From contig JAAAIG010000094.1 in assembly GCA_015852425.1 (NCBI GenBank), forward strand, positions 1-62,003: a stretch of 62,003 nt of DNA, read 5' to 3'. Under the pieces are notes generated by a model. The model was not told where the DNA came from and did not search any database. It saw only the letters and a program-made list of their open reading frames with translations. The position numbers and the translations under genes were made by a program. Shown in pieces: positions 16,081-54,767 of the stretch. Position 1 is the first letter of the stretch; every line of letters starts with the position of its first letter. This DNA comes from Gryganskiella cystojenkinii (Eukaryota; Mortierellomycota; Mortierellomycetes; Mortierellales; Mortierellaceae).

Positions 16081-18554
16081 TTAGATTGAGGTGTTGGCTA
16101 GACCACGCATATTGTATTGTGCGATGGAGTTGAGCAAGTCTCCGCAGGTCACAACATCCACCTTCTTGCCCAGGGGTCTCGCCAGATCCATACAGACTTC
16201 AATATCTGTACGCAACTTTTTGACCTTGAGAACGCCTTCGTTAGCCTGATCGAAAACGACCAAATGTTTCTTGGCAGGAGGCACCGTCGAGATCGTGTAG
16301 ACATCTTGAGCTCTATTTTCATTTCGAAACAACTGCTGGACGACTGTCCCGCCACCTGCTCGGATCATCAACTCCATTTCCTCCCGCAAGGGTTTAATAA
16401 ACGCGCCGGTAAGCTGCACCTCGTACCCTTCAAGTAATTTGGGTTCCTAACCAAGCAAATTGGAAGATGATAGCATTTAATTTTTCGGTCACGCTACTGC
16501 TTCGATGCAAAGGAAAAAAAAACAAACAACTTTGATATGACGCCTTAATCTTACTTCTCGAGCATGACTTGCTCGCGATCTCCTTGCACCATTGTTTCCG
16601 AATTCGTTATCATAAAGCAAAAACGGTTCTTCTTCTACCCAAAAACCTGCTTCCATAGACGCCTCCACCCCTACGATTTTTTTTTTTTGGTAAAGCAAAT
16701 ATAGTACTCGTTAGTATCTCAGTTGATGGTAAAAATGAAATTTCGCGCGATGGAGGATATTTCTTACATTCAAATCGAAGAACCCATGAAGCTCGTAAAA
16801 GTCCAAGAAAGAACTTGACCGTCCTACCGCCACCTCCTGCACATTGTTTCTCGGCTGTTATAACAACAGAAAATTTCGCGTTATTGTTAGTTCAAAAGCT
16901 CATACGAAGAGAAAGACAGCATACCAGGGATCTACGAATCGAAATCAGTCTTACTGATATTCAAAACTACATGAGTCGGTCTAGTTGAAAGATCGTCGAT
17001 CGTCTTTGCCTTGAGAGCTTTGGCCGCATTCTCTAGCCGCAGCTACGAGTCCAATGAAACAAAAAAAGCAGGTGGCAATGTGTCGGCGTCAGTTAGCTCT
17101 CATAATACATAAGATCAGCCAAGAAAATTGGCAGACTTTGGGTCTTGGTTTTTACCTTCTTCGCAGACGTTAGATTCGTACCAGAGAGGACAATATCCTT
17201 CTCCTTGGACGCTCTCACAGATTCAGTGACAAGAGTGGTGTCTGCTCCGGTGCTTTGAGAAGCAGGTTCCTCCTTCGGTACAAGCAAAGGCGGATCCGAT
17301 TGAGGAGGGAGCGTGGGTTGATCAACAATGTCTGTTGGCTCAAGTTTGATCGCAATCATGTCTCCAGATGATCGCTGTCTCATCAACGGCTGAGGCGTTG
17401 CTTCCCGTTGTGGTACTGATGCCACCTGAGATGTCCTTGCAGGTTGAGATGATGTGGGTTGTCGAGGTTTCGGCGGGGGCTGAGATTGAGAGTGAGATGG
17501 CGTGATTGGAGTGGGGTTGGAGAAGATATCGTTGAGATTAAGTTGGGACGAATATAGCGACATGATGGCCAGCATCTTTGTAGCCAGAGCAGCAGCCTGT
17601 TCTGCTGAAACTGTATCCAGATCCGTCTCAAATGCATCGAGATCCATGGCCTCTGGCAAGTCGTTATTTCTTTGAGTGCCGCTATGGGTGGCGAGTGTCG
17701 CGGATGTGGCCACTAGTGCCGGTTCTTGGTGTGCTTGTTGTAAGTACTGTAATTGCGGCTGTAGTCGTTGTTGCCTTTGATGAGGTGTCGAGTTTGGCGG
17801 TGTGGCTGTTGATAATGTTGTTCTCAATGCAGAGGTTGTTTTTGATTGAGTTGTAGGCGAAGCAGGCGCAGCCTGCAAAGCATCACCGGACTTTTCGGCG
17901 TAAGGGTAGAGTTGAGTCAAGTTCTCTTGTGGCTCTGAATGATAATACCGTGGTGCCTGCGACAAAGCTAGATGAGGTTTGATAGCAAGAAAATAGATGT
18001 ATTGCTGTTAAATGGCGCCTTTTCTTCCTCCGTGCCATGATCCCTGCCAGTTAGATCATCGTGGGTCCTGCAACGTTACCAATGCCGACCTCCTGTTCAT
18101 AAGCTTCCCGAAGGTTCTGATAGGCTTTGATAACACTCTCCAAATGGTCAAGTTTGTTCAGACTTCGTTTCGTGACAGGATTCTTGCAAAGTGGACAGCC
18201 TCCTTTGTGATCCAGCGCCTGACGTACACATGCGTTACAAAATATGTGGTTACACCCGGTGGATACTGGCTCCTCCATAGTCGCGAGACTAATAAAATAA
18301 AAAAGAAGAGAGGAGCGCCAGATGTGCGAGAAGAAACACAGGCGGGTTAGACTATATGCCTCCCACTTGACCGTACTGCGCCGTTGATTGAATGTCAATA
18401 AACGCTGACTGACATACCAAATGGAACATTTAAGCTCTTCTGCCATTCGAAGGAGGATCCCTTCGATGGTGTCTGGCAAGATCTCTTTGTTTAAACTGTC
18501 GTCATCATCTTGGGAGGAGATTCCTCTGTCGTTTGGATCCAGTGCCCTTGTCAT
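16081..18554 (-). CDS. BRCA1: BRCA1-like protein: N-terminal RING, disordered linker, C-terminal tandem BRCT
   Basis: Seven exons (18554-18418, 18288-18080, 17967-17156, 17042-16955, 16854-16768, 16670-16555, 16446-16081) close in phase to 604 residues. The RING, about residues 42-90, reads LKCSIC..., then EPVSTGCNHIFCNACVR and CPLCKNPVTKRSL, strikingly like BRCA1 (EPVST.C.HIFC..C and CPLCKN.ITKRSL); the Ile of C-x-I-C used for E2 contact is kept. A Gln/Pro/Ser-rich linker spans about residues 116-375. BRCT1 has IVLSG, RPTHVVLN, RTVKFFLG and WVLRFEWVEAS; the BRCA1 phosphoserine-pocket Ser-Gly and the Arg/Lys of R-x-x-K are kept. BRCT2 is LLEGYEVQLTGAF to DVVTCGDLLNSIAQY, lacking the usual late Trp. 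No ankyrin repeats, so not BARD1. BRCA1 acts with BARD1 as an E3 ligase in homologous recombination. Head-to-head with the 18787 gene. Confidence 0.9.
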
Positions 18555-18786
18555 GAGATCATGTCGCGCTTTGGGAGAGAAAATAATTGATAGAGAAGGT
18601 GAAAGGTGTGGTGGGACAATCGATTTGAATGTGATTTGCCACCATTTTTTATTCTTTGAAATTTTATTTTATTGTGCGATATTTGAACACCTGCGGCCCT
18701 CTTCTCATTCCTCATTCCTCATTCATTCATTCATTCATTCATTCATTCATTCATTCATTCATTCATTCGACAACTCGCAGAGGAGA
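18555..18786. promoter_or_regulatory. Shared divergent promoter with (CATT)n microsatellite
   Basis: Only 232 bases separate the BRCA1-like start (minus) from the start of the gene at 18787 (plus), so both promoters must fit here. The segment contains about twelve perfect tandem copies of the tetranucleotide ATTC at 18721-18768, preceded by three imperfect CTCATTC copies. The repeat ends about 18 bases before the plus-strand ATG. Confidence 0.7.
18721..18768. repeat. (ATTC)12 microsatellite
   Basis: Twelve perfect copies of ATTC in a row lie in the intergenic space between two divergent genes, flanked on the left by degenerate copies (CTCATTC). Its length probably varies between strains. Confidence 0.95.
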
Positions 18787-21270
18787 ATGGACCATCGATC
18801 AGAGAATGCAACTTCGACTCATGGGACTATAGAACCGAACCCGACATGGCTTCATGCTGATGCTGACAATGCTGATCCAGCAAGGCTTTTGGCCTTGGTC
18901 CTGATCTTTTACAAGGACGCCATGGCGAATCAGCTCAGCCTCACTTACCTCCCGAATGTCTTCAGGGACGTACAGGATCATGCTCTCGGGTCAGGGAGTC
19001 TGGTCCAGAGACACATTCCTCTCGGTGATCCTGGATCTCCTGAGCACGAATCGAGTCAGTGGGCACGAGTACTTCCCGATAAAGATTTTACTGGCTCCCC
19101 AGCGTCGGCACTGGTCGCGTGTCTGTTCTATACGATCGTAAACCTGCAAAAGAGTGCGATCCTTACCTTCAAGCAATCTCTCGAGGCAAGGGAAACCACA
19201 CCAAGGATGAGAAAGATGAAAGAAACAAGTTACGGAAGAAATTGCTCGGGACGACTAACTGAAGTCATGAATTCTCTGTGAATAGTCCAATGCGAAGGCA
19301 GTCTTTAACGTCGTGATGGCATCTTTGATGGACGGCTCCCAGACTCGCGACTGCGAGGATCTTTTGGTTCTATGCATGTACTTAAAGATGACCGACAAGA
19401 GCTGTAAAGTCCGACTGAAACTGGGCTGTCCTTCCCCACCGTCTTTTTGTCTGCATGTGTTCTACAGTGGCACTCACCACCTGCATCTCTTTGCCTTGGT
19501 TTTTAGATCCCTTGCGCCGATGTTCCAGCGACATTTGTCTGGAAATTATTGGCGAGAGCGCATTTCCGATCTTTGCACGAATATCGATCATGAAGCTGAT
19601 TCTTGGACCAGCATGTTTCATCATGGACGACAGGAAGCTCACCACTAAGCTCGCCAACCATATCACCGAACTGGTATGTTTTACAGCATGAAGGCGCAAA
19701 GGAGTTGTTAACAAGCACAAGAACAAAACAACTGTTTCTAACTGAGGGAGAATATCCGGCAAATAGCTCCGTCAAGATTCGTTCGAGGATATCGAGTTCA
19801 GGGCTCTAGTCAACAGGATAGCCAACAAGTTGGGTATCATCAGGATTCTTTCCGAGGGTGATCAGCAAAAGATCAGGTAAGACGATGATACGGGATGTCA
19901 TTGATCGCTCCACGTTACTTCTGCCGACCTTCAACTCACAAATGCCAAACAGGATGTACAAGTACCTAGACCTGATAGCAGCCGATCCGATGCGGTATAC
20001 CAATCCAAAAAAAATAGTGAAGGTATATTCCCAACGCCATTGTCATTCACGCTGCATTAAGTTAAGTCATGGACGTTGCTGACTCGCGTCCTGTTTCATG
20101 GCTTTCAACCTGAATATAGTTCATGCCATCGCAGCAATGGAGTCGATTAATGAAGCAAGATCTGCTCCTTTCGTTTTACGAGACCGACCACAAGCATTCC
20201 ACTGTACTGTTCTTGGAATCATGCAGGATAGAGGGGATCCAGTTCACACTCCTAGGCCCAGCATCTCTTGCTAATGCAGTTTTAGGATTACGGGACAAAG
20301 AAGACGAGGTCATGTTGGCCCTACTACTCACACAAGGTGAACTGCGGCCTTCTGGAAATCTGAGTGGACAGACGCGCAGAAGGTTACTTGAGGTTGCCTT
20401 GCGTACCGGAGAGGCCTCTGGTACGGTGGAGAGACATTTAAAGGAATCGAGCGAGTTTGTTTGCGGGGCGCTTCAGGTATCTGGGGCTGAGCGCCAATTG
20501 ACGGATCTTGCAGATATGCTTCTCCAGCACAGCGTCGTAGCTCCTTCAAAATACGTCCCAAAGTTAGCCTGGTGGTTAACACTGTGTCAGCGGGTGTGTC
20601 GTGACCTGAACATACCACGCTATTATGCGCAGGTAAAGTGCTGGAGTATGCCGAACGAACTGTCGATTATACATGCGACCAAGAACTGACACTCATTTTT
20701 CCACTCTCAAACTCATAGGTTCGAGCCACAAGTGCAACATGTCTAGATGCATGGCTAGGGTTGCTAGCTCACAGGAGTCGAGACTCGAGAGCGGAACTTG
20801 AATCTCACCTCCAGCTCTTCTCTCTTCTCTTTCCTGTTCACGAAGTCACAACGTGGACAGGTACGCCCAATCTGAGTGACTCTTCCGTAACTCCAGTAGC
20901 AACGGCGAACTTTGCACCTTTTCTCCGAGAGCTCATGAGGTGTCTCGTACCAAATTTAACTCGGTATCTTCAAGATGAGGAAAGATCAGTAATGGCAGTG
21001 CTCCTTGCTGCTTCGACAGTCTTTGACACGATAGCGTACAAAGTCCCCACAGCGATACTGTGCCAAGAATCGACCGCGATTCGGATAGTGCTGGGCGAGA
21101 TTGCAGATATGATCCAGGATTCCTCACTGATCAACAAGAGTCTGTGGTCGTCCATATTTCCAGTAGAACAGACGTTACATCCGTTCCAGGTGATGCAGAC
21201 GAGGTTGGATAATTTAGACTCTCTGCACAAAAAGGACCCATTCGGCACCCACAAGCCCGAGTGGACGTAA
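18787..21270 (+). CDS. Unrecognised 626-residue, mostly helical protein divergent from the BRCA1-like gene
   Basis: A seven-exon model (18787-19137, 19286-19403, 19507-19673, 19767-19876, 19953-20022, 20120-20632, 20719-21270) closes in phase and gives about 626 residues. The first two junctions are the least certain: the frame stays open past 19137 and other donors exist. Exons 4 to 7 look firm (VNRIANKLGIIRILSEG, LTQGELRPSGNLSGQTRRRL, LADMLLQHSVVAPSKYVPKL, VRATSATCLDAWLGLL, and last exon to PFGTHKPEWT). The sequence is Leu/Ala-rich and predicted helical, suggesting an alpha-solenoid (inference), with no catalytic motif, signal peptide or clear membrane span. I do not recognise the family. 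Head-to-head placement with a BRCA1-like gene suggests, but does not show, shared regulation. Confidence 0.65.

Positions 21271-46463: not shown

Positions 46464-54767
<8,304 letters not shown>

What the first reader, a model, noticed from the sequence alone, without database searches (positions are those of the whole stretch)
16081..18554. A compact BRCA1 homologue in a fungus
The model encodes RING plus tandem BRCT in 604 residues. The RING segment EPVSTGCNHIFCNACV and CPLCKNPVTKRSL is closer to BRCA1 than to generic RINGs. BRCT1 shares THVV, RT-x-K-FLG and W-V...WV--S with BRCA1, and the phosphoserine-pocket residues (Ser-Gly and R-x-x-K) are kept. The well-studied yeasts have no BRCA1, so a full-domain homologue in an early-diverging lineage bears on whether BRCA1 was ancestral to animals and fungi and later lost. 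All seven exons join in phase, arguing for a live gene.
Basis: partly seen in the sequence, partly recalled or inferred. Interest (0 to 1): 0.9.

Follow-up and report, generated by a model that had tools for sequence, protein, structure and literature searches.

The report
Fungal BRCA1-family repair protein
A fungus outside the well-studied yeasts and mushrooms appears to keep a small relative of the human breast-cancer protein BRCA1; this fits a published report that such fungi have BRCA1 homologues, so it is a good new example rather than a new kind of thing.

Summary
Against PDB sequences the RING matches BRCA1 best (60.8 bits); the BRCT region matches BARD1 best (55.0), BRCA1 next (43.8), Brc1 far below (24.5). 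Both domains point to one family, BRCA1/BARD1. A BRCT nearer BARD1 is no sign of a chimera: Arabidopsis BRCA1 and BARD1 (recalled letters) do the same. The RING leans to BRCA1; the tree does not settle it.

Corrections: the phosphoserine-pocket pair is Thr-Asn, not Ser-Gly. Residues 539-604, the second half of BRCT2, show no detectable similarity. Introns 2 and 3 are not unique (96 in-frame variants).

The genome has CHS5 (fungal), FANCD2, BRCA2 and an Rtt107-like gene. No BARD1 gene was found, but the search misses split exons.

Novelty is limited: PMC11061109 (2024) reports BRCA1 homologues, some expressed, in early-diverging fungi. Verdict: new member of a known family; open point, whether a BARD1 partner exists.

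The parts
18418..18554 (-). Exon 1: start codon, acidic N-terminus, first RING-flanking helix and the first C-x2-C up to the split Cys46 codon
   Evidence: gene model; alignment of residues 28-118 to BRCA1 1jm7_A residues 9-102
18289..18417 (-). Intron 1 (129 nt, GTATGT...TTAG; divisible by three and free of stops, so retention would insert 43 residues into the RING)
   Evidence: sequence; open frame 18051-18668
18080..18288 (-). Exon 2: rest of the C3HC4 RING (ligands C43, C46, C58, H60, C63, C66, C77, C80 with exon 1) and second flanking helix
   Evidence: numbering
17156..17967 (-). Exon 3: low-complexity middle region (residues about 116-369) and start of BRCT1 (VLSGTNLTSAKK)
   Evidence: middle region used as negative control
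16955..17042 (-). Exon 4: BRCT1 continued, ending in THVVLNI
   Evidence: BRCT Pfam match 374-449
16768..16854 (-). Exon 5: BRCT1 RTVKFFLG...SWVLRFE with K429 matching BRCA1 K1702
16555..16670 (-). Exon 6: end of BRCT1 (WVEAS) and the inter-BRCT segment NGARRSRASHAREE
16081..16446 (-). Exon 7: BRCT2 and stop codon; residues 480-538 supported, 539-604 not detectably similar to the reference BRCT2s
   Evidence: BRCT_2 E=0.005; shuffles; single-sequence model pLDDT 45, uninformative

Best explanation
The gene encodes a compact (604-residue) BRCA1-family RING E3 ubiquitin ligase, inherited vertically from the common ancestor of animals and fungi and lost in Dikarya. Most likely mechanism: the RING with its two flanking helices dimerises, probably with a BARD1-type partner not found here, or else with itself; it recruits a UBE2D-type E2 through the canonical groove (I45, P78, K81 at the positions of BRCA1 I26, P62, K65); the C-terminal BRCT region docks on phosphorylated or chromatin partners at damaged DNA; and the ligase marks chromatin (histone H2A in animals) to favour homologous recombination with the BRCA2 that this genome also encodes. 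Shown here: domain content, family assignment, kept E2-contact and pocket lysine positions, presence of BRCA2 and FANCD2. Inferred from the animal and plant proteins: vertical descent, dimerisation, ligase activity, substrate, role in repair.
For: RING best PDB match is BRCA1 (1jm7_A, 60.8 bits; next families TRIM30 43.4, TRIM5 37.6, BARD1 and TRIM25 36; best 60 of 135 hits were shown). BRCT best matches are BARD1 (55.0) then BRCA1 (43.8 rat, 39.5 human), above MDC1 (38.5), microcephalin (33.9) and Brc1 (24.5). Human BRCA1 pieces used as a query against the own genome hit this gene best (47.5 bits, next 40.0; 1st of 16); human and cat BARD1 pieces (1st of 3, 26.9 bits, next 22.2) and recalled Arabidopsis BARD1 (1st of 14, 40.7, next 35.3) do the same, each through the RING. 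The fungal RING scores higher against human BRCA1 1jm7_A (60.8) than recalled Arabidopsis BRCA1 (40.3) or BARD1 (42.2) do and shares CPLCKN-x-[IV]-TKRSL with it. BRCA2 OB1 9.5e-35 on C221; FANCD2 8.2e-28 on C776; CHS5 4.7e-27. PMC11061109 reports that for 30 of 32 FA proteins fungal sequences cluster with the animal ones.
Against: No RNA evidence. The BRCT region is nearer BARD1 than BRCA1, which leaves a BARD1 reading open although the plant control blunts it. RING scores are noisy: recalled Arabidopsis BRCA1 has RING2/BMI1 (52.7), TRIM30 (45.4), RNF4 (44.9) and TRIM5 (44.7) above human BRCA1 (40.7), and by identity over aligned sites the fungal RING is no nearer BRCA1 (33 of 87) than human BARD1 (27 of 71) or an own RNF4-like RING (23 of 62). 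RING tree: support at the relevant nodes is poor (bootstrap 25-56), the fungus-human BRCA1 grouping has SH-aLRT 0, and recalled Arabidopsis BRCA1 falls beside RAD18, BRE1 and RAD5-like RINGs. The second half of BRCT2 is unrecognisable. No BARD1, BRE or PALB2 was found, the last two without a positive control. The position of BRCA1 L51 is Ala70.
Confidence: 0.75

Rival explanations
1. It is the fungal BARD1 (or an undivided BRCA1/BARD1-like protein), not BRCA1: the BRCT region is BARD1-like and the true BRCA1 is lost or elsewhere.
For: BRCT 55.0 bits to BARD1 against 43.8 or less to BRCA1; identity over aligned sites 46 of 144 to human BARD1 and 46 of 199 to human BRCA1, though the BARD1 letters used end before the poorly kept second half of BRCT2, so the two are not like for like; zf-RING_6 (BARD1-type) is matched at 34.2 bits, just under its cut-off of 35.
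Against: Recalled Arabidopsis BRCA1 shows the same preference (BARD1 87.4 to 103.8 bits, BRCA1 64.6 to 75.7), which suggests slow change in animal BARD1 BRCTs. The RING scores 60.8 to BRCA1 and 36 to BARD1, keeps Lys at the BRCA1 K65 site where animal BARD1 has Tyr (both recalled plant proteins also have Lys), and no ankyrin family is among the Pfam matches.
Confidence: 0.15
2. A fungal-specific RING-BRCT protein that arose by fusing an unrelated RING to a BRCT pair and only resembles BRCA1.
For: RING identity to an own-genome RNF4-like RING is as high as to BRCA1 over aligned sites (23 of 62 against 33 of 87); the end of BRCT2 shows no similarity to the references.
Against: Two domains both find the same family first among 177,635 distinct sequences, the RING match includes both flanking helices, and the BRCT match includes the inter-domain GARRSR...PKL segment.
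Confidence: 0.06
3. The model joins two neighbouring genes, a RING gene (exons 1-2) and a BRCT gene (exons 3-7).
For: Intron 2 has a weak donor (GTAACG) and in-frame alternatives (96 versions over introns 2 and 3); no RNA was available.
Against: Same strand, a 112-base gap, a branch-point-like TCTAAC in the intron, and the resulting order is that of BRCA1.
Confidence: 0.04

Closest known systems
BRCA1 homologues of early-diverging fungi (Barua et al. 2024, PMC11061109)
   Same: Transcripts of BRCA1 reported in Lobosporangium transversale, Mucor lusitanicus and Rhizopus delemar; trees of 32 FA proteins said to agree with the species tree (section 4, section 13 part 1, section 14 read)
   Different: Their BRCA1 entry is listed under PF00533/IPR011364; the parts seen do not describe a RING, and BARD1 does not occur in the main text (0 occurrences). 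Sequences not compared; figures and supplements not open to me
Animal BRCA1 (human 1jm7, 1jnx; rat 1l0b, species by recall)
   Same: RING with flanking helices, CPLCKN-x-[IV]-TKRSL, R-T-x-K-[FY]-F-L-G and W...WV in BRCT1
   Different: 604 residues against 1863 in man (recalled); Thr-Asn instead of Ser-Gly; Trp of the last BRCT helix missing; no recognised domain in the central part
Animal BARD1 (1jm7, 3fa2, 8off)
   Same: BRCT region scores best here (55.0 bits)
   Different: RING scores much lower (36 bits); no ankyrin match in the fungal protein
Arabidopsis BRCA1 and BARD1 (recalled, unverified letters)
   Same: BRCTs also nearer animal BARD1 than animal BRCA1; RING 33 of 83 and 32 of 84 aligned sites identical to the fungal one
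   Different: The plant proteins carry an extended PHD domain (recalled); none was matched here
Rtt107 / S. pombe Brc1 / PTIP
   Same: BRCT repeats
   Different: 24.5 bits for Brc1; the genome has its own member on C131 (RTT107_BRCT_5 1.1e-15)

Membership tests
BRCA1 | N-terminal C3HC4 RING nearest to BRCA1 | tested here: met
   60.8 bits to 1jm7_A; next family 43.4; plain identity does not separate it
BRCA1 | Helices flanking the RING (dimer interface) | tested here: inconclusive
   Aligned through residues 28-118 with 1jm7_A 9-102; no structure could be made of the spliced protein
BRCA1 | E2-contact residues I26, P62, K65 (recalled) | tested here: met
   I45, P78, K81; the further contact L51 is Ala70 (alignment, numbering)
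BRCA1 | C-terminal tandem BRCT | tested here: inconclusive
   BRCT1 clear; BRCT2 supported for 480-538 only
BRCA1 | Phosphopeptide pocket Ser-Gly...Lys | tested here: inconclusive
   Lys429 kept; Ser-Gly is Thr-Asn. MDC1 uses Thr there (recalled)
BRCA1 | BRCTs nearer BRCA1 than any other family | tested here: not met
   BARD1 55.0 over BRCA1 43.8; recalled Arabidopsis BRCA1 also fails this, so it does not seem to define the family outside animals
BRCA1 | Heterodimer with BARD1 | not testable with these tools
   No BARD1 gene seen; binding needs an experiment
BRCA1 | Groups with BRCA1 in a tree | tested here: inconclusive
   Unrooted 14-row RING tree puts it beside human BRCA1 with SH-aLRT 0 and bootstrap 42; no BRCT tree was built
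BARD1 | BARD1-type RING (Pfam zf-RING_6 above cut-off) | tested here: not met
   34.2 bits against a cut-off of 35
BARD1 | Ankyrin repeats between RING and BRCT (animals) | tested here: not met
   No ankyrin family among 18 Pfam matches at E up to 1
Rtt107/Brc1/PTIP | BRCTs nearest to Rtt107/Brc1 | tested here: not met
   24.5 bits, below BARD1, BRCA1, MDC1 and microcephalin
TRIM or other generic RING ligases | RING nearest to TRIM/RNF families | tested here: not met
   43.4 bits at best against 60.8 for BRCA1

The most novel reading that the evidence does not exclude
The lineage kept a single BRCA1/BARD1-family protein and no separate BARD1: a lone, probably self-pairing RING-BRCT ligase doing the work of the animal heterodimer, either as a survivor of the state before BRCA1 and BARD1 divided their roles or by loss of BARD1. 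[quoted passage not shown]
Probability: 0.12. Interest if true: 0.65.

Novelty: new member of a known kind. Interest (0 to 1): 0.4.

Why it matters
Model yeasts lack BRCA1 (PMC3969565, passages), so BRCA1 biology has no simple fungal model. A compact BRCA1-family protein beside BRCA2 and FANCD2 in one fungal genome fits the published view that the ancestor of animals and fungi had this system and that it was lost later, and offers a short natural version in which to ask which parts of BRCA1 are essential. Whether it has a BARD1 partner would bear on how the heterodimer came about.

Tried and rejected
Chimera of BRCA1 RING and BARD1 BRCT: raised, dropped after the plant control. Separate BARD1 in the genome: PF14835 (9 matches, none over the cut-off; this gene first at 28.1 bits, next 27.0), the fungal protein itself (24 matches, 7 of them its own exons), BARD1 pieces (3), recalled Arabidopsis BARD1 (14). 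The RING loci looked at were named by eye from their open frames: RAD5-like, RAD18, BRE1, CHFR-like, LONRF, RNF4/SLX8-like, UHRF1, RING-WD40; only L011 (RING families) and L012 (WD40 repeats) of these went through Pfam. Of the BRCT loci, Pfam identifies CHS5, the Rtt107-like and BRCT-WGR genes and a DNA ligase; RFC1, FCP1 and TopBP1 are names by eye. A profile of BRCA1/BARD1 BRCTs run on six-frame ORFs of the loci then fetched, 12 on C998 excluded, passed its inclusion threshold only in loci already brought in by the BRCT families (Rtt107-like, BRCT-WGR, L042). The absence is not proved: the BRCT exons of the known gene itself were missed, and one search found only one exon-7 piece (E 0.02). 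5.8S rRNA to name the species: no match. Relatives in GTDB genomes and IMG/VR, sought by six short peptide patterns: 14 stretches matched in GTDB, none a relative by tblastn; no match in IMG/VR. Structure of exon 7 alone: pLDDT 45, not used for fold search. Literature: ten searches (the lists showed 20 of 41 and 20 of 69 papers). Of the papers opened, PMC11061109 treats BRCA1 in early-diverging fungi and PMC3969565 touches it; PMC5913265 and PMC4102429 hold one passing mention each, and PMC8164572 concerns C1ORF112.

Full report
What is there. The window is contig C998 of a 35.0-Mb assembly of 1050 contigs. Varying introns 2 and 3, with the rest fixed, gives 96 in-frame versions; the 6 with GTA donors at both were printed and differ at the start of BRCT1, 2 of them lacking the GTNLTS segment; the other 90 were only counted. 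Splicing intron 1 restores the first zinc-binding C-x2-C of the RING, which is good evidence for that intron, although its length is a multiple of three and it has no stop.

Family. Pfam finds a C3HC4 RING and a BRCT. phmmer against 177,635 distinct PDB sequences gives BRCA1 for the RING (60.8 bits; TRIM30 43.4; BARD1 36; best 60 of 135 hits shown). For the BRCT region it gives BARD1 (55.0), BRCA1 (43.8 rat, 39.5 human), MDC1 38.5, microcephalin 33.9, Brc1 24.5 (35 hits). Species of PDB chains are recalled. As a yardstick, human BARD1 scores 45.6 (rat) and 33.3 to 36.4 (human) against BRCA1. Two domains pointing to the two partners of one family is the main argument.

BRCA1 or BARD1? The split signal looked like a chimera, so I ran plant controls with Arabidopsis letters recalled from memory. 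Plant BRCA1 (BARD1 87.4-103.8 bits, BRCA1 64.6-75.7) and plant BARD1 (3fa2 83.0, BRCA1 67.1-72.6) also have BRCTs nearer animal BARD1. Their RINGs score human BRCA1 at 40.3 and 42.2; plant BARD1 scores human BARD1 RING at 29.6, and for plant BRCA1 no BARD1 RING chain is among the 60 of 125 rows shown, while RING2/BMI1, TRIM30, RNF4 and TRIM5 stand above BRCA1. So the split is what distant members show, and RING rank is noisy. In favour of BRCA1 here are the height of the RING score, the CPLCKN-x-[IV]-TKRSL string, Lys81 at the K65 site (also Lys in both recalled plant proteins), and no ankyrin match. Plain RING identity does not separate the families (33 of 87 BRCA1, 27 of 71 human BARD1, 23 of 62 RNF4-like), and a 14-row RING tree does not resolve them. 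No BRCT tree was built.

Limits of the domains. Shuffle tests (500 each) support residues 370-452 and 480-538 in 4 of 4 comparisons each, and fail for 539-604 (338, 325, 88 of 500 in the 3 comparisons that cover it), as they do for the middle region used as negative control (62-401 of 500). The last BRCT helix lacks its Trp. AlphaFold2 on exon 7 alone was uninformative.

Genome. CHS5 (4.7e-27) marks a fungus. FANCD2 marks a fungus outside Dikarya if PMC11061109 is right that the ID complex was lost there. BRCA2 is present. A separate Rtt107-like protein is on C131. Queries with pieces of human BRCA1, human and cat BARD1, and recalled plant BARD1 each rank this gene first, through the RING. No BARD1 was found; because the same searches miss the split BRCT exons of the known gene, and eight RING places were not followed up, this is weak evidence of absence. 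BRE and PALB2 gave nothing, without a positive control. The species could not be named (no 5.8S match).

Literature. PMC11061109 (section 4, section 13 part 1 and section 14 read; passages found) reports BRCA1 homologues in early-diverging fungi with expression data; BARD1 is not named in its main text. [quoted passage not shown] PMC8483008 (passages) states in 2021 that databases held no fungal BRCA1 orthologue. So the finding supports an existing claim. Searches aimed at BARD1 in such fungi listed 2, 1 and 0 papers, by title on other subjects; none was opened.

Verdict. A credible BRCA1-family gene in a fungus that is probably outside Dikarya: a new member of a known kind, of moderate interest, with an open question about its partner.

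Noticed in passing
window 46689-54767 (+), intein within 51301-52092: A PRP8 gene (named by eye apart from its tested part) interrupted by an intein: the frame 51301-52092 carries the U6-snRNA-binding domain of PrP8 (1.4e-18) followed by a Hom_end-associated Hint domain (1.7e-17).
   Followed up: partly
window 18721-18768: An ATTC tetranucleotide run lies in the short space between this gene and a divergently transcribed frame beginning near 18787, of which three tested ORF pieces have no Pfam match at E up to 0.01.
   Followed up: partly
L042 (G000:C131:33500-38000), minus strand: On the same contig as the Rtt107-like gene, a BRCT match lies just after a 592-codon open frame with repeated APTQ motifs, reminiscent of MDC1 (recalled); that frame has no Pfam match, and that the two belong to one gene is inferred.
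   Followed up: partly
window 18289-18417: Intron 1 is stop-free and divisible by three, so intron retention would yield a RING broken by 43 residues: a possible regulated or mis-annotated form.
   Followed up: no
L003 (G000:C1022) minus strand: A BRCT-WGR protein, PARP-like, although PMC3969565 states that PARP1 was lost in all fungi it examined.
   Followed up: no
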